A stretch of DNA of 64,000 nt, taken from NCBI GenBank assembly GCA_964036275.1, contig OZ038436.1, positions 399,001-463,000 on the forward strand, read 5' to 3'. This stretch comes from Litoditis marina. Taxonomy: Eukaryota > Nematoda > Chromadorea > Rhabditida > Rhabditidae. Below are positions 39,786 to 51,718 of the stretch, piece after piece. The notes under the pieces were generated by a model, which saw only the letters and a program-made list of their open reading frames with translations, did not search any database and was not told where the DNA came from. Position 1 is the stretch's first letter. Each line of letters starts with the position of its first letter. Position numbers and translations under genes: made by a program.

Positions 39786-39791
39786 CATAAC
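39786..39791. repeat. Left target-site duplication CATAAC
   Basis: The same six bases follow the right end of the element at 51713-51718. Six bases is the duplication size of Polinton/Maverick transposons. Confidence 0.85.
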
Positions 39792-40399
39792 AGTAGTAGA
39801 CCAGCCCGTGAATGAACCAAAAGGGGCGGAGCCTAGCGCGCGGCTGCACCCGGCGCGCAGCCAGCCGGCAACATACAGTAACCTAGGTACAGTAACCTAG
39901 GTACAGTAATCCTTATACAGTATAACGGTAATTCTTAAGGAAAAAGTTTTTTCTCAGGTTTTCTCACACGTTTCTACACGTGTCCACACGCTCTCTCACG
40001 TTTTTTCTTGGCTCTTTTCCAAGGAATTTTCTGGAATCTGAGTATTTCGCAATACCTGATACATATTTCGCAATAGCTTGATAAAAATCGATAATGAAAT
40101 GATGGGCACGGTACGTTTGTAAGCGTTATCGCGTAGTGTAGGAAATTATCTGGCACGCTTGACTCAAGAACCTTAGTTTGAGAATACACGTTATTGATTT
40201 GTATTGACTTGTATCCGGTGGCTGCGCAACTATAGTTTGTTTATATTAGTGCAACAGGTGCCAGGCACCAGGCTGCTCAGAATAGAAAACGAGGGGGTTT
40301 AAAGCCTCATGGGGGTTATAACTTCCAAGTACAGTTTATTCGGTTCACACGTGACATGTGTTTTAACAGGAAAGATAGCATCCATCAATCTACCTCAAA

Positions 40400-40492
40400 C
40401 TTGGGTAATTAACCGGATGGGGTTATCCAACATACGTACTTAGATAACGTTTTCACGTGTTACACGTGGTGTGTCATGTAAATGTACGTGTC
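40400..40492 (+). repeat. Subterminal repeat 1, left arm
   Basis: ACTTGGGTAA ... ACATACGTACTTAG ... TTTCACGTGTTACACGTG ... GTGTCATGTAAATGTACG. A diverged second copy is at 40843-40942. It carries CACGTG palindromes. Confidence 0.75.
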
Positions 40493-40842
40493 CTGTACCG
40501 CCTTCCATATAAAATGAAACATGCGCGAGCTACATAGATCAAAACATAAGCTGCATTCTACTCTACATGAAACATGAAGAACACCCGAGATTCCCGATTT
40601 GTGATGCAATTTTTAAAGGACTGTGTATTGCAAATTCCGGGCGCTGCGAGACCCATAACGCAATTGAAATTAACTATGCCGACAAGCTGCAATACGCAGT
40701 ATATACGTTATATTGTTAATATAATATTACCTAAACTTATACGGATTCACACATAGAATGTTTTACAACAAGAAAGCATTTTCTGTGTTTTCCTATATTT
40801 TTTTTTCAAAACTTTGTCGGTTTAGAACCAGAACGCACCTTT

Positions 40843-40942
40843 AACTTGGGTAACTGAACAGACTGGTTGGAAAAATCGTCGACGTACGTATTTAGTTCGG
40901 GTTTTCACGTGTTACACGTGATGTGCCATGTGAATGTACGGT
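40843..40942 (+). repeat. Subterminal repeat 2, left arm
   Basis: ACTTGGGTAACTGAACAGAC ... GACGTACGTATTTAG ... TTTCACGTGTTACACGTG ... TGCCATGTGAATGTACGG. It repeats the block at 40400-40492 with divergence. Confidence 0.75.
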
Positions 40943-41318
40943 AACCGATTAACAACGTAAATAAATAGTGACCGGGATATCCTGCCATTTTCGCACTTTA
41001 TTCCAACATTTTTATACTTTAATGGCAAAACTACCTTAATTTTGTGACATTTGTGTACTTTAATAAAGTATCATCTTGGAATTCCCAGCACTGGTGTAAT
41101 TATTGATCACCTTCTAAAAGAGTATCTATATTATTGAACAACACAACACAACACATCCAATTTTAACTACAAACTCTAAAGCATTTAATGGAGTCACCAA
41201 ACGTGATTCCGTAATGCGTTTAACAACGTGCAGTATTTTCTTGGAATTCGTAGTATTGGTAATAAAGACACGCGGTGTGTTGCGCACAAAACAAAAGTTT
41301 TTTAGGTTGATAATTTTA

Positions 41319-42032
41319 TTACAAAGTCCACAATTTTATATACAATCTTCTCCTTCCGGTTCCTTGCTGGCGGGTTCGCCTGGACATGGGAGCTGGCGCC
41401 GGAACTCCATAAACTCTATCGGCGGAAGCGTTTGTTTCAGCCATTTTTCTCCTGGCGCTTCTTGAGACTACCGGAGTCCACTGGTCGGCACTTTTATCCG
41501 AAGCTGTATCGTAATTTTCGTTCTCATCGTTCTCAGACTCGGCCAACATTTCCAATTTAATAGGTTTTTCTTCCTTTTCCGCTATTGGCTGAATGTCGTA
41601 ATTCACTTTGCTTCGCACGTGATTGTAAAACTCCTCATAACCATACGGCATGAAATCAGTTTTGTACATTGCATAATCCAAGTTGGTATTTATGTTGGAT
41701 CTTTCTATGACTCGGCCATCCAGCACAATTTCTTGCCTATCGTTCGTGCGAATCCCTTCAAATATCTTCCAGAAGTTCTTATCTTTAGTAGGTAATTTGT
41801 ATGCTGGTACGACATCGTTCGAAGGCGGCAATTCGATTCGGACAGTTGGTGGAACATCAATAGATTCTAGAAAACCTCGCAACCGAGCCATCGCATCTTC
41901 ATAAAGTGCAACTTTTTCGTAGTCGGCGAGAGTTGTGCTATGAAGTATATCGGACATTCTCTGTTTCAGAGATGCTGTATGTTTCTCATCCTCATTCAGA
42001 GGGGCAAGCATATACTTTCCGGTTGTTTTCAT
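41319..42032 (-). CDS. Element protein of 237 aa, left-arm copy
   Basis: It encodes the same protein as 49472-50185 with no residue change. The ATG at 42032 is the first one downstream of the TATATAA box at 42174-42180. The protein is hydrophilic and acidic in its second third (ESENDENENYDTASDKSADQ) and ends in a basic tail (RRTRQQGTGRRRLYIKLWTL). No transmembrane segment, Walker motif or zinc finger is visible, and I do not recognise the family. A stop with overlapping AATAAA closes the gene. Confidence 0.7.
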   Translation of the reverse strand: MKTTGKYMLAPLNEDEKHTASLKQRMSDILHSTTLADYEKVALYEDAMARLRGFLESIDVPPTVRIELPPSNDVVPAYKLPTKDKNFWKIFEGIRTNDRQEIVLDGRVIERSNINTNLDYAMYKTDFMPYGYEEFYNHVRSKVNYDIQPIAEKEEKPIKLEMLAESENDENENYDTASDKSADQWTPVVSRSARRKMAETNASADRVYGVPAPAPMSRRTRQQGTGRRRLYIKLWTL

Positions 42033-42166
42033 CTTCTCAAGTCACAAAAAGTAAAAGCTGTATTCGGAAATGCCGTAATATTCTGCGCGGGGAGATTAAA
42101 TTGAGGGCTGGCTTCTGTAAGTGGTCTTAACGCAAGCACTTGGTTATTTGGCGGTTTGGTGCTCAT
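42029..42166 (-). CDS. Possible 45-aa upstream frame, left-arm copy
   Basis: Its TGA overlaps the ATG of the 237-aa gene in the string ATGA. It begins MSTKPPNNQVLALRPLTEAS. The start codon lies only about 8 bp after the TATA box, upstream of where transcription should begin, so translation is doubtful. Confidence 0.3.
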   Translation of the reverse strand: MSTKPPNNQVLALRPLTEASPQFNLPAQNITAFPNTAFTFCDLRR

Positions 42167-42173
42167 TGTCACC

Positions 42174-42180
42174 TTATATA
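42174..42180 (-). promoter_or_regulatory. TATA box for the 237-aa gene, left arm
   Basis: TATATAA on the minus strand, about 142 bp before the 237-aa ATG; no other ATG lies downstream of the expected start site. Confidence 0.6.
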
Positions 42181-42334
42181 CTCTCCATATGTCACACTTT
42201 CGTCCAACTTTTAAAAAAAAAAAAACTTGTTGCGGTGTTGTGGTGGGTGTTATCCACAAGTTGCGGTGGGTGTTTTTTTCTATTGTTAAAAGAAGCCATT
42301 ACAACTAATTAAATTGTTTATTCTATGAAAACAC

Positions 42335-42643
42335 TCATAATTGTAGGTTACAAGCTGTTAATGCTGGAATTATAATTGCTTCTATGTGATCCTGGGATAA
42401 GCGACGGAGTTGTCTTCTCGCCAAATCTGGACTGCGAATACTTGAAATGTCGTACAGGAGAGGTAGAACAGGTTTCAAAGTGTCCCTCTCAGAACAAGTT
42501 AGGAAAAGTTTGTCATTGTTCAAAATGTTATAAATAATCTCAACTAGGATATTTATCTGGGGAATCTGCGCTGTTTCAATTATAGAGCAATCGGACATGC
42601 ACGTAAATAGGAACCCAGAATGTTTGCTTAAGCGACTGGACAT
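42335..42643 (-). CDS. Element protein of 102 aa, left-arm copy
   Basis: Identical in protein sequence to 48862-49170. It starts MSSRLSKHSGFLF, 46 bp after a TATAAAA box. The central region is predicted helical (QINILVEIIYNIL, SERDTLKPVLPLLYDIS), followed by basic ARRQLRRLS and hydrophobic IEAIIIPAL. An AATAAA lies just after the stop. The family is not recognised with confidence; small helical proteins of this general pattern occur in Polinton-like elements (recollection, not checked). Confidence 0.65.
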   Translation of the reverse strand: MSSRLSKHSGFLFTCMSDCSIIETAQIPQINILVEIIYNILNNDKLFLTCSERDTLKPVLPLLYDISSIRSPDLARRQLRRLSQDHIEAIIIPALTACNLQL

Positions 42644-42848
42644 AATCGTTGTTCGTGTTAAAATGATTCATTTGTCCAGTTTTGGTCGTTTTATAGCCAA
42701 ATTGGGACATACATTGTAATGTTGTCAATCGCAAGTTTAGCACGCCTGCCTTCATCGAATCTTGTTGAGGTGTTGCGATAACCGCCTTTAGCGAACAAAA
42801 TACGACACGCCTACTCTCCAAATGATAATTCTCAAAACTAACAATCAT
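42576..42848 (-). CDS. Doubtful 90-aa frame, left-arm copy
   Basis: An ATG-initiated open frame (MIVSFENYHLESRRVVF) that overlaps the 102-aa gene in another frame. The TATA box of the 102-aa gene lies inside it. No family resemblance. It could be a real overlapping gene or chance. Confidence 0.3.
   Translation of the reverse strand: MIVSFENYHLESRRVVFCSLKAVIATPQQDSMKAGVLNLRLTTLQCMSQFGYKTTKTGQMNHFNTNNDYVQSLKQTFWVPIYVHVRLLYN
42689..42695 (-). promoter_or_regulatory. TATA box for the 102-aa gene, left arm
   Basis: TATAAAA on the minus strand, 46 bp before the 102-aa ATG at 42643; the first ATG after the expected start site is that of the 102-aa gene. Confidence 0.6.
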
Positions 42849-42927
42849 TTTCCAAACACCCACTTCTTAGGCAGCAGAGAGTTACAACAAGTAAGTCTCC
42901 ATGCCTTTTCTGTTCAAATAATTACGT

Positions 42928-45420
42928 ACAAGTACACTTGTCCTTGCTAATCCACCCCCTAGGTACATGAAAGTTACTTTTTTCAACTTTTGTAACTTTC
43001 GAAACATTCGAAACATTTTATTTGTGTGTACCCACACTTTTCCTTGCTAGTCCACCCCAGGGGTACATGAAAGTTACTTTTTTCAACTTTTGTAACTTTC
43101 GAAACATTCCAAAGGCGTCATTTTATTTGTGTGTATCCACACTTTTCCTTGCTAGGCCACCCGCTGGGTACATGAAAGTTACTTTTTCAACTTTTGTAAC
43201 TTTCGAAACATTCCAAAGGCACCATTTTATTTGTGTGTACCCACACTTTTCCTTGCTGGTCCACCCCCTAGGTACATGAAAGTTACTTTTTTCAACTTTT
43301 GTAACTTTCGAAACATTCCAAAGGCGTCATTTTATTTGTGTGTATCCACACTTTTCCTTGCTAGGCCACCCCCAGGGTACATGAAAGTTACTTTTTCAAC
43401 CTTTGTAACTTTCGAAACATTCCAAACATGTTATTTGTGTGTACCCACACTTTTTCTTGCTAGTCCACCCCCGGGGTCCATGAAAGTTACTTTTTCAACC
43501 TTTGTAACTTTCGAAACATTCCAAACATGTTATTTGTGTGTACCCACACTTTTTCTTGCTAGGCCACCCGCTGGGTACATGAAAGTTACTTTTTCAACTT
43601 TTGTAACTTTCGAAACATTCCAAAGGCACCATTTTATTTGTGTGTACCCACACTTTTCCTTGCTGGTCCACCCCCTAGGTACATGAAAGTTACTTTTTTC
43701 AACTTTTGTAACTTTCGAAACATTCCAAAGGCGTCATTTTATTTGTGTGTATCCACACTTTTCCTTGCTAGGCCACCCCCAGGGTACATGAAAGTTACTT
43801 TTTCAACCTTTGTAACTTTCGAAACATTCCAAACATGTTATTTGTGTGTACCCACACTTTTTCTTGCTAGTCCACCCCCGGGGTCCATGAAAGTTACTTT
43901 TTCAACCTTTGTAACTTTCGAAACATTCCAAACATGTTATTTGTGTGTACCCACACTTTTTCTTGCTAGTCCACCCCCGGGGTCCATGAAAGTTACTTTT
44001 TCAACCTTTGTAACTTTCGAAACATTCCAAACATGTTATTTGTGTGTACCCACACTTTTTCTTGCTAGTCCACCCCCGGGGTCCATGAAAGTTACTTTTT
44101 CAACTTTTGTAACTTTCGAAACATTCGAAACGTTTTATTTGTGTGTACCCACACTTTTCCTTGCTAGGCCACCCCCTAGGTACATGAAAGTTACTTTTTT
44201 CAACTTTTGTAACTTTCGAAACATTCGAAACATTTTATTTGTGTGTACCCACACTTTTCCTTGCTAGTCCACCCCAGGGGTACATGAAAGTTACTTTTTT
44301 CAACTTTTGTAACTTTCGAAACATTCCAAAGGCACCATTTTATTTGTGTGTACCCACACTGTTCCTTGCTAGGCCACCCCCTAGGTACATGAAAGTTACT
44401 TTTTTCAACTTTTGTAACTTTCGAAACATTCCAAAGGCGTCATTTTATTTGTGTGTATCCACACTTTTCCTTGCTAGGCCACCCCCAGGGTACATGAAAG
44501 TTACTTTTTCAACCTTTGTAACTTTCGAAACATTCCAAACATGTTATTTGTGTGTACCCACACTTTTTCTTGCTAGTCCACCCCCGGGGTCCATGAAAGT
44601 TACTTTTTCAACTTTTGTAACTTTCGAAACATTCGAAACGTTTTATTTGTGTGTACCCACACTTTTCCTTGCTAGGCCACCCCCTAGGTACATGAAAGTT
44701 ACTTTTTTCAACTTTTGTAACTTTCGAAACATTCGAAACATTTTATTTGTGTGTACCCACACTTTTCCTTGCTAGTCCACCCCCAGGGTACATGAAAGTT
44801 ACTTTTTCAACCTTTGTAACTTTCGAAACATTCCAAACATGTTATTTGTGTGTACCCACACTTTTTCTTGCTAGTCCACCCCCGGGGTCCATGAAAGTTA
44901 CTTTTTCAACTTTTGTAACTTTCGAAACATTCGAAACGTTTTATTTGTGTGTACCCACACTTTTCCTTGCTAGGCCACCCCCTAGGTACATGAAAGTTAC
45001 TTTTTTCAACTTTTGTAACTTTCGAAACATTCGAAACATTTTATTTGTGTGTACCCACACTTTTCCTTGCTAGTCCACCCCCGGGGTACATGAAAGATAC
45101 TTTTTTCAACTTTTGTAACTTTCGAAACATTCGAAACATTTAATTTGTGTGTACCCACACTTTTCCTTGCTAGTCCACCCCCGGGGTACATGAAAGTTAC
45201 TTTTTCAACTTTTGTAACTTTCGACACATTCGAAACGTTTTATTTGTGTGTACCCACACTGTTCCTTGCTAGTCCACCCCAGGGGTACATGAAAGTTACT
45301 TTTTTCCACTTTTGTAACTCTCGAAACATTCCAAAGGCGCCATTCTATTTGTGTGTACTCTCATTTTTCCTGGCCAGGCCCTTCCTTAGGTGAAAGTTAC
45401 TTTATCACTTTTGGAACTTT
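42928..45420 (+). repeat. Tandem array of about 24 units of 98-106 bp, left arm
   Basis: Each unit carries two hairpins: GTGTG-TACC-CACAC, and GAAAGTTAC ... GTAACTTTC around a TTTTTTCAACTTT loop. Between them is CCTTGCTAGTCCACCCCC. Units differ in a variable ending (CATTCGAAACATTTTATTT, CATTCCAAACATGTTATTT, CATTCCAAAGGCGTCATTTT), and these variants recur in a patterned order, suggesting higher-order duplication. Outer units are degenerate. Long open frames through it result from repetition and lack ATG starts. Confidence 0.95.
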
Positions 45421-45639
45421 CCAGTTTTCCAAAACTCTACTTTCACTCCGGTCTTTCACATTGTTTGTGGCGGGCTCATCGCCACGTCAGGCATTTTATG
45501 CCTAATACTCATTGTTGTTGGAACTGAATTGTAAAATAAAAGGCACATCGAACTCACTTATTGTGAGTTCTCAATGCCTAATGAGTGGGTGTTGAAAATT
45601 TATGATATTTTCTTTTTTTTTTTTTTCGATTTGGTTATT

Positions 45640-45656
45640 GCTCCGCGGTGCGGAGC
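45640..45656. repeat. Border palindrome, left side of loop
   Basis: GCTCCGCGGTGCGGAGC, a 7-3-7 perfect hairpin, is the last sequence shared by the arms on this side. Confidence 0.9.
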
Positions 45657-45848
45657 GGTTGAAGAAGTTATCTGCATAACAATCAACTGAGTTTGTCGTG
45701 AATGAATCACAGAAAATTGAGGGGGCCGTCTGGAAAAAGTCTGTTAGAAGGTTAGATTTCTTGTTTTCCAAATGAACGCGGGAAAACTGAGTCAATTAAG
45801 TTGAACGCCTTCAGCCAGGTGGTTAAAATTTGAGAGTTTCAAAACACA
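45657..45848. other. Unique loop at the centre of the palindrome
   Basis: About 192 bp with no inverted copy. A minus-strand open stretch starts in the loop and runs into the left arm (FSRVHLENKKSNLLTDFFQT ...). It has no ATG, so it may be the truncated remainder of a gene of the parent element. Confidence 0.75.
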
Positions 45849-46084
45849 GCTCCGCACCGCGGAGCAATAACCAAATCGAAAAAAAAAAAAAAGAAAATAT
45901 CATAAATTTTCAACACCCACTCATTAGGCATTGAGAACTCACAATAAGTGAGTTCGATGTGCCTTTTATTTTACAATTCAGTTCCAACAACAATGAGTAT
46001 TAGGCATAAAATGCCTGACGTGGCGATGAGCCCGCCACAAACAATGTGAAAGACCGGAGTGAAAGTAGAGTTTTGGAAAACTGG

Positions 46085-48577
46085 AAAGTTCCAAAAGTGA
46101 TAAAGTAACTTTCACCTAAGGAAGGGCCTGGCCAGGAAAAATGAGAGTACACACAAATAGAATGGCGCCTTTGGAATGTTTCGAGAGTTACAAAAGTGGA
46201 AAAAAGTAACTTTCATGTACCCCTGGGGTGGACTAGCAAGGAACAGTGTGGGTACACACAAATAAAACGTTTCGAATGTGTCGAAAGTTACAAAAGTTGA
46301 AAAAGTAACTTTCATGTACCCCGGGGGTGGACTAGCAAGGAAAAGTGTGGGTACACACAAATTAAATGTTTCGAATGTTTCGAAAGTTACAAAAGTTGAA
46401 AAAAGTAACTTTCATGTACCCCGGGGGTGGACTAGCAAGGAAAAGTGTGGGTACACACAAATAAAATGTTTCGAATGTTTCGAAAGTTACAAAAGTTGAA
46501 AAAAGTAACTTTCATGTACCTAGGGGGTGGCCTAGCAAGGAAAAGTGTGGGTACACACAAATAAAACGTTTCGAATGTTTCGAAAGTTACAAAAGTTGAA
46601 AAAGTAACTTTCATGGACCCCGGGGGTGGACTAGCAAGAAAAAGTGTGGGTACACACAAATAACATGTTTGGAATGTTTCGAAAGTTACAAAGGTTGAAA
46701 AAGTAACTTTCATGTACCCTGGGGGTGGACTAGCAAGGAAAAGTGTGGGTACACACAAATAAAATGTTTCGAATGTTTCGAAAGTTACAAAAGTTGAAAA
46801 AAGTAACTTTCATGTACCTAGGGGGTGGCCTAGCAAGGAAAAGTGTGGGTACACACAAATAAAACGTTTCGAATGTTTCGAAAGTTACAAAAGTTGAAAA
46901 AGTAACTTTCATGGACCCCGGGGGTGGACTAGCAAGAAAAAGTGTGGGTACACACAAATAACATGTTTGGAATGTTTCGAAAGTTACAAAGGTTGAAAAA
47001 GTAACTTTCATGTACCCTGGGGGTGGCCTAGCAAGGAAAAGTGTGGATACACACAAATAAAATGACGCCTTTGGAATGTTTCGAAAGTTACAAAAGTTGA
47101 AAAAAGTAACTTTCATGTACCTAGGGGGTGGCCTAGCAAGGAACAGTGTGGGTACACACAAATAAAATGGTGCCTTTGGAATGTTTCGAAAGTTACAAAA
47201 GTTGAAAAAAGTAACTTTCATGTACCCCTGGGGTGGACTAGCAAGGAAAAGTGTGGGTACACACAAATAAAATGTTTCGAATGTTTCGAAAGTTACAAAA
47301 GTTGAAAAAAGTAACTTTCATGTACCTAGGGGGTGGCCTAGCAAGGAAAAGTGTGGGTACACACAAATAAAACGTTTCGAATGTTTCGAAAGTTACAAAA
47401 GTTGAAAAAGTAACTTTCATGGACCCCGGGGGTGGACTAGCAAGAAAAAGTGTGGGTACACACAAATAACATGTTTGGAATGTTTCGAAAGTTACAAAGG
47501 TTGAAAAAGTAACTTTCATGGACCCCGGGGGTGGACTAGCAAGAAAAAGTGTGGGTACACACAAATAACATGTTTGGAATGTTTCGAAAGTTACAAAGGT
47601 TGAAAAAGTAACTTTCATGGACCCCGGGGGTGGACTAGCAAGAAAAAGTGTGGGTACACACAAATAACATGTTTGGAATGTTTCGAAAGTTACAAAGGTT
47701 GAAAAAGTAACTTTCATGTACCCTGGGGGTGGCCTAGCAAGGAAAAGTGTGGATACACACAAATAAAATGACGCCTTTGGAATGTTTCGAAAGTTACAAA
47801 AGTTGAAAAAAGTAACTTTCATGTACCTAGGGGGTGGACCAGCAAGGAAAAGTGTGGGTACACACAAATAAAATGGTGCCTTTGGAATGTTTCGAAAGTT
47901 ACAAAAGTTGAAAAAGTAACTTTCATGTACCCAGCGGGTGGCCTAGCAAGAAAAAGTGTGGGTACACACAAATAACATGTTTGGAATGTTTCGAAAGTTA
48001 CAAAGGTTGAAAAAGTAACTTTCATGGACCCCGGGGGTGGACTAGCAAGAAAAAGTGTGGGTACACACAAATAACATGTTTGGAATGTTTCGAAAGTTAC
48101 AAAGGTTGAAAAAGTAACTTTCATGTACCCTGGGGGTGGCCTAGCAAGGAAAAGTGTGGATACACACAAATAAAATGACGCCTTTGGAATGTTTCGAAAG
48201 TTACAAAAGTTGAAAAAAGTAACTTTCATGTACCTAGGGGGTGGACCAGCAAGGAAAAGTGTGGGTACACACAAATAAAATGGTGCCTTTGGAATGTTTC
48301 GAAAGTTACAAAAGTTGAAAAAGTAACTTTCATGTACCCAGCGGGTGGCCTAGCAAGGAAAAGTGTGGATACACACAAATAAAATGACGCCTTTGGAATG
48401 TTTCGAAAGTTACAAAAGTTGAAAAAAGTAACTTTCATGTACCCCTGGGGTGGACTAGCAAGGAAAAGTGTGGGTACACACAAATAAAATGTTTCGAATG
48501 TTTCGAAAGTTACAAAAGTTGAAAAAAGTAACTTTCATGTACCTAGGGGGTGGATTAGCAAGGACAAGTGTACTTGT
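46085..48577 (-). repeat. Tandem array, right arm
   Basis: Mirror image of the array at 42928-45420 with the same order of unit variants. One substitution distinguishes the arms (45097 versus 46408). Confidence 0.95.
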
Positions 48578-48656
48578 ACGTAATTATTTGAACAGAAAAG
48601 GCATGGAGACTTACTTGTTGTAACTCTCTGCTGCCTAAGAAGTGGGTGTTTGGAAA

Positions 48657-48929
48657 ATGATTGTTAGTTTTGAGAATTATCATTTGGAGAGTAGGCGTGT
48701 CGTATTTTGTTCGCTAAAGGCGGTTATCGCAACACCTCAACAAGATTCGATGAAGGCAGGCGTGCTAAACTTGCGATTGACAACATTACAATGTATGTCC
48801 CAATTTGGCTATAAAACGACCAAAACTGGACAAATGAATCATTTTAACACGAACAACGATTATGTCCAGTCGCTTAAGCAAACATTCTGGGTTCCTATTT
48901 ACGTGCATGTCCGATTGCTCTATAATTGA
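48657..48929 (+). CDS. Doubtful 90-aa frame, right-arm copy
   Basis: Mirror copy of 42576-42848. The only ATG-initiated form begins MIVSFENYHLE. The TATAAAA at 48810 lies within it, which argues it may be promoter DNA and not a gene. Confidence 0.3.
   Translation: MIVSFENYHLESRRVVFCSLKAVIATPQQDSMKAGVLNLRLTTLQCMSQFGYKTTKTGQMNHFNTNNDYVQSLKQTFWVPIYVHVRLLYN
48810..48816 (+). promoter_or_regulatory. TATA box for the 102-aa gene, right arm
   Basis: TATAAAA, 46 bp before the 102-aa ATG at 48862. Confidence 0.6.
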
Positions 48930-49170
48930 AACAGCGCAGATTCCCCAGATAAATATCCTAGTTGAGATTATTTATAACATTTTGAACAATGACAAACTTT
49001 TCCTAACTTGTTCTGAGAGGGACACTTTGAAACCTGTTCTACCTCTCCTGTACGACATTTCAAGTATTCGCAGTCCAGATTTGGCGAGAAGACAACTCCG
49101 TCGCTTATCCCAGGATCACATAGAAGCAATTATAATTCCAGCATTAACAGCTTGTAACCTACAATTATGA
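48862..49170 (+). CDS. Element protein of 102 aa, right-arm copy
   Basis: It encodes the same protein as 42335-42643. The gene is compact: TATAAAA at 48810, ATG at 48862, stop at 49170, AATAAA at 49183. Nothing suggests an intron. Cysteines are few and scattered, there is no signal peptide, and the C-terminal half alternates basic (ARRQLRRLS) and hydrophobic (IEAIIIPALTACNLQL) stretches, which could suit a small DNA- or virion-associated protein. That role is inference only. Confidence 0.65.
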   Translation: MSSRLSKHSGFLFTCMSDCSIIETAQIPQINILVEIIYNILNNDKLFLTCSERDTLKPVLPLLYDISSIRSPDLARRQLRRLSQDHIEAIIIPALTACNLQL

Positions 49171-49323
49171 GTGTTTTCATAGAATAAACAATTTAATTAG
49201 TTGTAATGGCTTCTTTTAACAATAGAAAAAAACACCCACCGCAACTTGTGGATAACACCCACCACAACACCGCAACAAGTTTTTTTTTTTTAAAAGTTGG
49301 ACGAAAGTGTGACATATGGAGAG

Positions 49324-49330
49324 TATATAA
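49324..49330 (+). promoter_or_regulatory. TATA box for the 237-aa gene, right arm
   Basis: TATATAA; transcription starting about 30 bp downstream would skip the 45-aa frame's ATG at 49338 and reach 49472 as its first ATG. Confidence 0.6.
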
Positions 49331-49337
49331 GGTGACA

Positions 49338-49475
49338 ATGAGCACCAAACCGCCAAATAACCAAGTGCTTGCGTTAAGACCACTTACAGAAGCCAGCCCT
49401 CAATTTAATCTCCCCGCGCAGAATATTACGGCATTTCCGAATACAGCTTTTACTTTTTGTGACTTGAGAAGATGA
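49338..49475 (+). CDS. Possible 45-aa upstream frame, right-arm copy
   Basis: It ends in the ATGA overlap with the 237-aa gene (TGA at 49473, ATG at 49472). Such an overlap allows termination-reinitiation coupling in some viruses, but the TATA position makes inclusion in the transcript doubtful. Confidence 0.3.
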   Translation: MSTKPPNNQVLALRPLTEASPQFNLPAQNITAFPNTAFTFCDLRR

Positions 49476-50185
49476 AAACAACCGGAAAGTATATGCTTGC
49501 CCCTCTGAATGAGGATGAGAAACATACAGCATCTCTGAAACAGAGAATGTCCGATATACTTCATAGCACAACTCTCGCCGACTACGAAAAAGTTGCACTT
49601 TATGAAGATGCGATGGCTCGGTTGCGAGGTTTTCTAGAATCTATTGATGTTCCACCAACTGTCCGAATCGAATTGCCGCCTTCGAACGATGTCGTACCAG
49701 CATACAAATTACCTACTAAAGATAAGAACTTCTGGAAGATATTTGAAGGGATTCGCACGAACGATAGGCAAGAAATTGTGCTGGATGGCCGAGTCATAGA
49801 AAGATCCAACATAAATACCAACTTGGATTATGCAATGTACAAAACTGATTTCATGCCGTATGGTTATGAGGAGTTTTACAATCACGTGCGAAGCAAAGTG
49901 AATTACGACATTCAGCCAATAGCGGAAAAGGAAGAAAAACCTATTAAATTGGAAATGTTGGCCGAGTCTGAGAACGATGAGAACGAAAATTACGATACAG
50001 CTTCGGATAAAAGTGCCGACCAGTGGACTCCGGTAGTCTCAAGAAGCGCCAGGAGAAAAATGGCTGAAACAAACGCTTCCGCCGATAGAGTTTATGGAGT
50101 TCCGGCGCCAGCTCCCATGTCCAGGCGAACCCGCCAGCAAGGAACCGGAAGGAGAAGATTGTATATAAAATTGTGGACTTTGTAA
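49472..50185 (+). CDS. Element protein of 237 aa, right-arm copy
   Basis: It begins MKTTGKYMLAPLNEDEKHTA. A helical N-terminal half (residues about 15-55) is followed by a proline-containing VPPTVRIELPPSNDVVP segment, then KDKNFWKIFEGIRTNDRQE and an aromatic MPYGYEEFYNHVRSKVNYD stretch. The acidic region (about 165-185) and basic C-terminus follow. AATAAA overlaps the TAA stop. No intron is apparent. Preservation of an intact 237-codon frame in both arms suggests recent origin or selection. Function unknown. Confidence 0.7.
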   Translation: MKTTGKYMLAPLNEDEKHTASLKQRMSDILHSTTLADYEKVALYEDAMARLRGFLESIDVPPTVRIELPPSNDVVPAYKLPTKDKNFWKIFEGIRTNDRQEIVLDGRVIERSNINTNLDYAMYKTDFMPYGYEEFYNHVRSKVNYDIQPIAEKEEKPIKLEMLAESENDENENYDTASDKSADQWTPVVSRSARRKMAETNASADRVYGVPAPAPMSRRTRQQGTGRRRLYIKLWTL

Positions 50186-50561
50186 TAAAATTATCAACCT
50201 AAAAAACTTTTGTTTTGTGCGCAACACACCGCGTGTCTTTATTACCAATACTACGAATTCCAAGAAAATACTGCACGTTGTTAAACGCATTACGGAATCA
50301 CGTTTGGTGACTCCATTAAATGCTTTAGAGTTTGTAGTTAAAATTGGATGTGTTGTGTTGTGTTGTTCAATAATATAGATACTCTTTTAGAAGGTGATCA
50401 ATAATTACACCAGTGCTGGGAATTCCAAGATGATACTTTATTAAAGTACACAAATGTCACAAAATTAAGGTAGTTTTGCCATTAAAGTATAAAAATGTTG
50501 GAATAAAGTGCGAAAATGGCAGGATATCCCGGTCACTATTTATTTACGTTGTTAATCGGTT

Positions 50562-50661
50562 ACCGTACATTCACATGGCACATCACGTGTAACACGTGAA
50601 AACCCGAACTAAATACGTACGTCGACGATTTTTCCAACCAGTCTGTTCAGTTACCCAAGTT
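50562..50661 (-). repeat. Subterminal repeat 2, right arm
   Basis: Mirror of 40843-40942, with CACGTGTAACACGTG at its core. Confidence 0.75.
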
Positions 50662-51011
50662 AAAGGTGCGTTCTGGTTCTAAACCGACAAAGTTTTGAAA
50701 AAAAAATATAGGAAAACACAGAAAATGCTTTCTTGTTGTAAAACATTCTATGTGTGAATCCGTATAAGTTTAGGTAATATTATATTAACAATATAACGTA
50801 TATACTGCGTATTGCAGCTTGTCGGCATAGTTAATTTCAATTGCGTTATGGGTCTCGCAGCGCCCGGAATTTGCAATACACAGTCCTTTAAAAATTGCAT
50901 CACAAATCGGGAATCTCGGGTGTTCTTCATGTTTCATGTAGAGTAGAATGCAGCTTATGTTTTGATCTATGTAGCTCGCGCATGTTTCATTTTATATGGA
51001 AGGCGGTACAG

Positions 51012-51104
51012 GACACGTACATTTACATGACACACCACGTGTAACACGTGAAAACGTTATCTAAGTACGTATGTTGGATAACCCCATCCGGTTAATTACC
51101 CAAG
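51012..51104 (-). repeat. Subterminal repeat 1, right arm
   Basis: Mirror of 40400-40492; the core reads CACGTGTAACACGTGAAAAC. Confidence 0.75.
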
Positions 51105-51712
51105 TTTGAGGTAGATTGATGGATGCTATCTTTCCTGTTAAAACACATGTCACGTGTGAACCGAATAAACTGTACTTGGAAGTTATAACCCCCATGAGGC
51201 TTTAAACCCCCTCGTTTTCTATTCTGAGCAGCCTGGTGCCTGGCACCTGTTGCACTAATATAAACAAACTATAGTTGCGCAGCCACCGGATACAAGTCAA
51301 TACAAATCAATAACGTGTATTCTCAAACTAAGGTTCTTGAGTCAAGCGTGCCAGATAATTTCCTACACTACGCGATAACGCTTACAAACGTACCGTGCCC
51401 ATCATTTCATTATCGATTTTTATCAAGCTATTGCGAAATATGTATCAGGTATTGCGAAATACTCAGATTCCAGAAAATTCCTTGGAAAAGAGCCAAGAAA
51501 AAACGTGAGAGAGCGTGTGGACACGTGTAGAAACGTGTGAGAAAACCTGAGAAAAAACTTTTTCCTTAAGAATTACCGTTATACTGTATAAGGATTACTG
51601 TACCTAGGTTACTGTACCTAGGTTACTGTATGTTGCCGGCTGGCTGCGCGCCGGGTGCAGCCGCGCGCTAGGCTCCGCCCCTTTTGGTTCATTCACGGGC
51701 TGGTCTACTACT

Positions 51713-51718
51713 CATAAC
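51713..51718. repeat. Right target-site duplication CATAAC
   Basis: Direct repeat of 39786-39791, in the same orientation. Confidence 0.85.

What the first reader, a model, noticed from the sequence alone, without database searches (positions are those of the whole stretch)
39786..51718. An 11.9-kb palindromic transposon with Polinton-like ends
Two 5.86-kb arms in inverted orientation, outer ends starting 5'-AGTAGTAG, and a 6-bp duplication CATAAC make one transposition unit. Polintons/Mavericks have AG-starting inverted termini and 6-bp duplications, but their inverted repeats are normally hundreds of bp to about 1 kb and enclose 15-20 kb of unique genes. Here nearly the whole element is inverted repeat and all core genes are missing. 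I do not know a described example of such a giant foldback Polinton derivative in nematodes.
Basis: partly seen in the sequence, partly recalled or inferred. Interest (0 to 1): 0.92.

Follow-up and report, generated by a model that had tools for sequence, protein, structure and literature searches.

The report
Mirror-image snap-back Polinton transposons
In this nematode genome, large virus-like jumping genes (Polintons) have repeatedly given rise to mirror-image shortened versions that inserted as complete units, much like the defective "snap-back" genomes seen in some animal DNA viruses.

Summary
Confirmed. 39792-51712 is one insertion: two 5.86-kb inverted arms (one substitution and one poly-A indel apart), a 186-nt spacer, 5'-AGTAGT ends and a perfect 6-bp duplication. 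It is not alone: the nematode genome holds nine further copies of the spacer, and all nine other elements with these ends that I tested have 6-bp duplications. Each arm keeps two Polinton genes (pN/pS 0.33 and 0.25); polymerase, integrase and capsid genes are absent. Palindromes of the polymerase-bearing half of a Polinton exist too, one with 98% the same ends.

A second Polinton family shows how such palindromes arise. A copy with polymerase and capsid genes has three near-identical derivatives, each turning back at a different junction (3-nt, 15-nt imperfect and no microhomology). A copied strand switched to its complement and ran back to the same end, as in snap-back defective viral genomes. 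In the window family, four of seven copies have virtually identical arms although copies differ by 2.5-6%, so both arms probably come from one template arm.

Polinton derivation is strong; fold-back origin is strong for family 2 and inferred for the window; hairpin replication and trans-supplied enzymes are inferred. My paper searches found no description.

The parts
39786..39791 (.). left copy of target-site duplication CATAAC
51713..51718 (.). right copy of target-site duplication CATAAC
39792..45659 (+). left arm of the palindrome
   Evidence: inverted repeat
45846..51712 (-). right arm of the palindrome (reverse complement of left arm)
45660..45845 (.). 186-nt unique centre (loop); 10 copies in the genome; of the 9 other copies, 8 lie in elements shown here to be palindromic in whole or in part and one (C1:10218727) was not examined
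39792..40039 (+). ~248-nt terminus shared at 98-99% with a polymerase-bearing Polinton palindrome (C1:3481508)
51465..51712 (-). same terminus at the right end
41319..42032 (-). 237-aa ORF, homologue of a gene next to the ATPase-like gene in a full Polinton (42-46% identity)
   Evidence: pN/pS 0.33
49472..50185 (+). second copy of the 237-aa ORF
42335..42643 (-). 102-aa ORF, homologue of the neighbouring Polinton ORF (50% identity)
   Evidence: pN/pS 0.25
48862..49170 (+). second copy of the 102-aa ORF
42934..45335 (.). 99-bp tandem array, ~24 units
46170..48571 (.). mirror 99-bp tandem array
40394..40414 (-). SL1 spliced-leader-like exon followed by GTA (one T fewer than nematode SL1)
   Evidence: the motif is also dispersed genome-wide
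51090..51110 (+). mirror SL1-like exon

Best explanation
The element is a non-autonomous, palindromic Polinton (Maverick) derivative of snap-back type. In a parent Polinton, a DNA strand being copied by (presumably protein-primed) strand displacement switched template onto its own complementary strand and was copied back to the terminus it had started from. The product carries the same Polinton end on both sides, a loop in the middle, and has lost the other half of the parent. Because both ends are valid replication and integration ends, such molecules can be copied and inserted with 6-bp duplications by enzymes supplied in trans by intact relatives. One such product, the window family, became a lineage of its own that keeps two Polinton genes. 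A new copy commonly receives both arms from one template arm, most simply because a displaced single strand folds into a hairpin and is copied around. Shown: palindromes, TSDs, shared ends, homologous genes, three distinct fold-back junctions against one canonical copy in family 2, low within-copy versus high between-copy divergence in four of seven copies. Inferred: protein priming, the direction parent to derivative, the hairpin intermediate, the trans supply, and that the window family arose the same way as family 2.
For: (1) Perfect 6-bp TSDs, all different, in the window and in 9 of 9 elements tabled: six window-type palindromes, two polymerase palindromes and one full Polinton. Two family-2 derivatives also have them, ATGAAG and TACGTG, read by eye. 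(2) A canonical copy and three derivatives with three different junctions. The copy at C18:1.85M has PolB at 1864404, the capsid gene at 1856539 and the 237-aa homologue at 1853743. Derivative A at C16:3.0M follows it to about 1859775, then returns on the other strand from about 1856188 with microhomology CGA. B at C16:18.6M turns at about 1860046 and returns from about 1856056 over a 15-nt imperfect inverted match. C at C2:16.3M turns at about 1861666 and returns at a place extrapolated to about 1855495, with no microhomology and one extra nt. Identity to the copy is 99.3-99.9% over the long aligned stretches; near the turn of C there is a repetitive stretch at 97.8% with a gap. (3) The 237-aa gene: 24 inverted pairs within 20 kb among 89 gene loci, 23 of 24 in the same divergent order (from the list, a lower bound). 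(4) The terminus is 98% identical between the window and a palindrome carrying PolB twice (99.2% over 248 nt). 5'-(AGT)2 ends and 6-bp TSDs are reported for vertebrate Mavericks (PMC8097293, passages). (5) Outer 3 kb of arms: 0, 0, 0 and 1 substitutions within four of seven copies, against 2.5-6.0% between copies.
Against: No parent Polinton with the window's own spacer was found: the 10 spacer matches include none in an element known to be full-length, so the window junction cannot be traced. The full Polinton read here has ends only 83-88% identical to the window's, and the closest homologue of the 237-aa protein outside the window family is 46-47% identical. Three of seven copies have diverged arms (22, 49 and 120 substitutions in 3 kb), and 10, 25 and 65 of those sites have both alleles in other copies too, so arms are sometimes of mixed origin. 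Identical arms could also result from gene conversion in the chromosome. The polymerase palindromes do not join cleanly to the full Polinton: 822 and 330 bp of essentially unmatched sequence lie before their centres. Of the family-2 canonical copy only 1856000-1863500 was read plus search hits; its ends and TSD are not shown. Of derivatives B and C the whole arms were not fetched. The protein-primed mechanism is taken from knowledge of Polintons, not tested.
Confidence: 0.82

Rival explanations
1. Assembly artefact: fold-back (chimeric) reads or a mis-joined inverted duplication.
For: Fold-back chimeras are a known long-read artefact (recalled). One copy, C493, has 37 one-base gaps and no substitutions between its arms, which looks like unpolished sequencing error.
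Against: The palindromes tested have two different flanks joined by a perfect 6-bp TSD. Ten loci share the same centre. Three copies have arms differing by 0.7-4%, so the assembly can tell arms apart.
Confidence: 0.03
2. The palindrome formed once by an ordinary inverted duplication in the chromosome, and arm identity is kept by arm-to-arm gene conversion, as in Y-chromosome palindromes (recalled); no replication intermediate is needed.
For: Would explain near-identical arms; three copies show arm differences at sites that are polymorphic among other copies.
Against: Three independent junctions against one canonical copy and palindromes from both the polymerase side and the integrase side point to a recurrent property of Polinton replication. 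The palindromes with both ends tested end exactly at Polinton termini with TSDs, so the palindrome existed before insertion.
Confidence: 0.15
3. A different transposon class (for example a foldback element or another DDE transposon with 6-bp TSDs) that captured two Polinton genes.
For: Foldback elements with long modular inverted repeats exist in Drosophila and sea urchin (recalled).
Against: The terminal ~250 bp are 83-98% identical to the ends of PolB-bearing elements; the 237 and 102 ORFs lie side by side as in full Polintons; family 2 shows the route directly.
Confidence: 0.03
4. Pure dead-end defective copies without function: the ORFs are just passengers.
For: Some copies have stops or frameshifts in the 237-aa ORF (C85 left arm, C4:48.76M, C16:32.30M, C493 right arm).
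Against: pN/pS is 0.33 over 7 copies for the 237-aa ORF and 0.25 over 6 copies for the 102-aa ORF (no significance test, related sequences). Several copies have almost identical arms yet differ from each other by 2.5-6%, so the lineage has persisted.
Confidence: 0.2

Closest known systems
Polinton/Maverick self-synthesising transposons
   Same: 5'-AGTAGT ends, perfect 6-bp TSDs, ends near-identical to a PolB-bearing element, two homologous genes
   Different: nearly the whole element is inverted repeat; no PolB, integrase, ATPase or capsid frame seen in the window element
Snap-back defective interfering genomes of AAV (PMC8235507, passages read)
   Same: head-to-head self-complementary genomes made from either the left or the right moiety, symmetric or with a loop
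   Different: AAV is a parvovirus with hairpin-type replication; here they are integrated transposon copies with TSDs, and some form families
Adenovirus symmetric defective genomes with duplicated ends (recalled, no paper read)
   Same: protein-primed linear genome giving palindromes with one end duplicated
   Different: virus particles in culture, not inherited insertions
Foldback (FB/TU) transposons (recalled)
   Same: very long inverted repeats with internal tandem repeats
   Different: ends, TSD length and gene content differ; here the relatives are Polintons
Teratorn (PMC6431247, passages)
   Different: 41-182 kb with 18-bp TIRs, a piggyBac-type transposon joined to a herpesvirus; not a fold-back derivative of a Polinton

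Membership tests
Polinton/Maverick | 5'-AG/(AGT)n-type termini | tested here: met
   AGTAGTAG in the window and the 9 elements, AGTAGTGT in two family-2 derivatives; (AGT)2 end motif in PMC8097293
Polinton/Maverick | 6-bp target-site duplications | tested here: met
   window plus 9 of 9 in the table; two family-2 derivatives by eye
Polinton/Maverick | encodes type-B DNA polymerase | tested here: not met
   no ORF of 100 aa or more beyond the 237, 102 and tandem-array frames, and no PolB match at the window's place; two relatives with the same kind of ends encode it in both arms
Polinton/Maverick | encodes RVE integrase, packaging ATPase, capsid proteins | tested here: not met
   no such frame in the window element, no capsid match there. 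In the full relative C16:24.6M they are present by inspection; Pfam support is below cut-off for ATPase (22.1 of 22.8 bits) and capsid (18.1 of 27), none for the protease-like frame, and the integrase was read by eye only
Non-autonomous Polinton derivative | ends and internal genes homologous to a Polinton in the same genome | tested here: met
Snap-back defective genome | one terminus and adjoining region duplicated head-to-head through a fold-back junction, other half lost | tested here: inconclusive
   shown against a canonical copy for three family-2 derivatives; for the window the form is met but no parent was found
Snap-back defective genome | replicates with enzymes supplied in trans | not testable with these tools
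   inferred from absent PolB and integrase plus shared ends

The most novel reading that the evidence does not exclude
The genome hosts a split, segmented Polinton. Palindromic polymerase segments (two PolB copies), palindromic 237/102-gene segments and other palindromes share ends and complement each other in trans. Each replicates through a hairpin that renews both arms from one strand, so that a virus-like transposon has become multipartite.
Probability: 0.15. Interest if true: 0.95.

Novelty: new variant of a known kind. Interest (0 to 1): 0.8.

Why it matters
Polintons are thought to replicate by protein priming, but this is inferred from their genes (recalled; PMC8097293 says it would be expected). 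Recurrent snap-back derivatives with traceable junctions would be a physical footprint of strand-displacement copying, readable from assemblies. Arm identity offers a built-in clock, like LTRs, and suggests insertions that are recent yet drawn from a diverse pool, as expected of a circulating virus-like population. Palindromes that duplicate Polinton genes could also give hairpin RNA, a possible trigger of RNA interference against the parent (inference). A search for such palindromes in other genomes would test whether defective-genome dynamics are general for Polintons.

Tried and rejected
Rfam at gathering threshold on the window gave nothing. Neither arm protein has a Pfam family at E up to 1. 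The 237-aa protein had six relatives above threshold in the protein database, none with a name; its AlphaFold2 model is poor (mean pLDDT 57), so no fold search was made. I considered that the element carries its own spliced-leader RNA gene. The SL1 exon plus GT donor recurs in four Polinton families, and a chosen set of 12 loci and the window gave 10 matches with up to 2 substitutions against 0 for each of 30 shuffled 22-mers. But the exact 25-mer occurs 742 times in the genome, reversed control 0, the Rfam SL1 score in the window is only 23.9 bits, and I saw no convincing Sm site downstream, so it is reported only in passing. An empty site was not found in the own assembly. The energy z-score of the centre is not evidence, because the folded stretch includes the complementary inner ends of the arms. 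A PDB search with the ATPase-like frame gave nothing useful. Paper searches: ten in all. Those closest to the point: maverick+polinton+palindrom (21 papers hold the terms, 15 seen in the listing); polinton, maverick, snapback, foldback, defective interfering, at least 3 of 5 (6 papers); polinton+non-autonomous+terminal inverted repeats+nematode (11 papers, 8 seen). I read passages, not whole texts, of PMC8097293, PMC2836005, PMC4028283, PMC6431247 and PMC8235507. No listing or passage that I saw described palindromic Polintons; subscription journals are mostly not in the library.
Full report
OBSERVATION. Arms 39792-45659 and 45846-51712 are inverted copies around a 186-nt spacer; 5865 aligned nt hold one substitution and one poly-A indel. 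Ends read AGTAGTAG and the TSD is CATAAC. Elsewhere in the window the longest exact inverted repeat is 65 nt.

CONTENT. Each arm has a terminus of about 250 nt, an SL1-like motif, a 237-aa ORF, a 102-aa ORF next to it and a 99-bp tandem array of about 24 units. Neither protein has a Pfam match.

THE FAMILY. The terminal 200 bp have 38 matches in the 262-Mb genome, many of them inverted pairs about 8-17 kb apart. Fetching pairs as halves showed window-type palindromes at C18:3.18M, C4:19.65M, C493, C4:46.10M, C85, C16:28.85M and C4:48.76M. At C16:32.30M only one arm was read, but the 237-aa gene is present twice there in inverted order. The spacer occurs 10 times: the window, these eight, and C1:10218727, which I did not examine. 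TSDs are perfect in 9 of 9 elements tabled. At C4:48.76M one terminus appears interrupted, and no TSD was tested there, at C16:32.30M, or at C481.

POLINTON ORIGIN. C16:24626391-24643746 (17.3 kb; inverted ends aligned over 315 nt at 90%; TSD GACGTA) has a polymerase over the Pfam cut-off (PF03175), an ATPase-like frame just under it (Pox_A32, 22.1 against 22.8 bits), a capsid-like frame under it (DJR-like, 18.1 against 27) and, by eye, an integrase with chromodomain-like tail split over the two fetched halves. It also has homologues of the 237-aa (42%) and 102-aa (50%) ORFs, side by side. Its ends are 83-88% identical to the window's. Two more palindromes, C1:3481508-3494506 (arms aligned over 6394 bp, 99.98%) and C3:21330548-21342362 (5854 bp, 99.88%), carry the polymerase twice, facing inward. 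The first shares 98-99% of its terminus with the window, the second 86-93% depending on the method. Their centres differ (1 nt and 33 nt) and they leave the full Polinton at different places, so they probably arose separately.

HOW PALINDROMES ARISE. A second family gives the answer. At C16:3.0M, inverted arms of about 5.19 kb with at most one mismatch carry in each arm an integrase-like frame, a 292-aa frame (237 homologue), a 102-aa frame, an ATPase-like and a minor-capsid-like frame (named by eye, except the 237 homologue), with one capsid gene in the unique centre. A copy at C18:1.85M has the 237 homologue and the capsid gene at the same spacing, followed by a polymerase. Three derivatives follow this copy at 99.3-99.9% over the long aligned stretches and then leave it at three different places to run back along the other strand. 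The junctions have a 3-nt overlap, a 15-nt imperfect overlap, and no overlap with one extra base. Two of the three have both ends read, with 6-bp TSDs ATGAAG and TACGTG. The ends of the third and of the canonical copy were not fetched. This is what template switching onto the complementary strand during strand displacement would give. That the canonical copy represents the parent is inferred: it continues unbroken through all three turning points.

HOW COMMON. Counting gene loci from six-frame searches whose lists are lower bounds: 24 inverted pairs within 20 kb among 89 loci of the 237-aa gene, 23 in the order minus-plus; 6 pairs among 74 polymerase loci; 6 among 66 capsid loci. Pairs are a proxy: arms were checked directly only for the elements named above and for C481, whose arms are degraded to 81-98%. 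Some pairs may be neighbouring insertions or gene fragments.

ARM RENEWAL. In the outer 3 kb, seven copies show 0 (window), 0 (C18), 120 (C4:19.65M), 1 (C493), 0 (C4:46.10M), 49 (C85) and 22 (C16:28.85M) substitutions between their two arms, while different copies differ by 2.5-6.0%. Over whole arms four of eight window-type copies have 0-3 substitutions (window 1, C18 3, C493 0, C4:48.76M 1). In C4:46.10M the 51 mismatches of the full alignment lie outside the outer 3 kb. In the three diverged copies both alleles are seen in other copies at 65 of 120, 25 of 49 and 10 of 22 sites, and the two arms of C4:19.65M fall in different places of the tree with different terminus variants. So more than half of the copies look young, with arms made from one template, yet they stem from a diverse pool; some are hybrids. 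Hairpin copying explains this best in my view; gene conversion is the main rival.

ARE THE GENES USED? pN/pS is 0.33 for the 237-aa ORF (7 copies, one arm each) and 0.25 for the 102-aa ORF (6 copies). This suggests purifying selection in the lineage, without a significance test. Broken copies exist.

HOST. A nematode: tandem SL1 RNA genes in units of about 1.36 kb (57.7 and 56.3 bits, under Rfam's gathering score of 75); the one read has an exact SL1 exon and an AATTTTGG Sm-like site. Species not identified.

VERDICT. A snap-back, palindromic Polinton derivative that became a family, in a genome where such derivatives have formed repeatedly. New variant of a known kind; the viral counterparts are known (AAV; adenovirus, recalled).

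Noticed in passing
window 40394-40414 (-), 51090-51110 (+); L013 4563 (-), L025 4642 (-), L053 997 (-), L046 3800 (-): The nematode SL1 exon followed by GTA sits with unrelated flanks in four Polinton families (with one changed or missing base in the window and L046); in PolB elements it is antisense, apparently inside a short intron (judged by eye). The exact 25-mer occurs 742 times genome-wide, reversed control 0; among the first places listed many are single and dispersed. Cause unknown.
   Followed up: partly
G000 C1:5293, C1:27348, C1:46614: Three right-end copies of the window family repeat at about 19-22 kb near the start of contig C1, shortly before an SL1 gene array at 64-91 kb. Only one was partly read (L032).
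   Followed up: partly
L015/L016 (C493): Arms differ by 37 one-base gaps and no substitutions in 5.7 kb, which looks like unpolished sequencing errors.
   Followed up: partly
G000 C4:52931016-52938477: Four polymerase matches in alternating orientation within 7.5 kb, perhaps an inverted duplication of back-to-back fragments.
   Followed up: no
G000 C4:48772990-48784636: The right terminus of a window-type palindrome appears to be split by an 11.6-kb insertion, judging by two part matches.
   Followed up: no
ends of window-type copies: Termini of four copies (window, C18, C4:19.65M left arm, C493) are 100% identical (rounded) over about 250 nt although their outer 3 kb differ by 2.9-4.8%, suggesting constraint or exchange at the ends.
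   Followed up: partly
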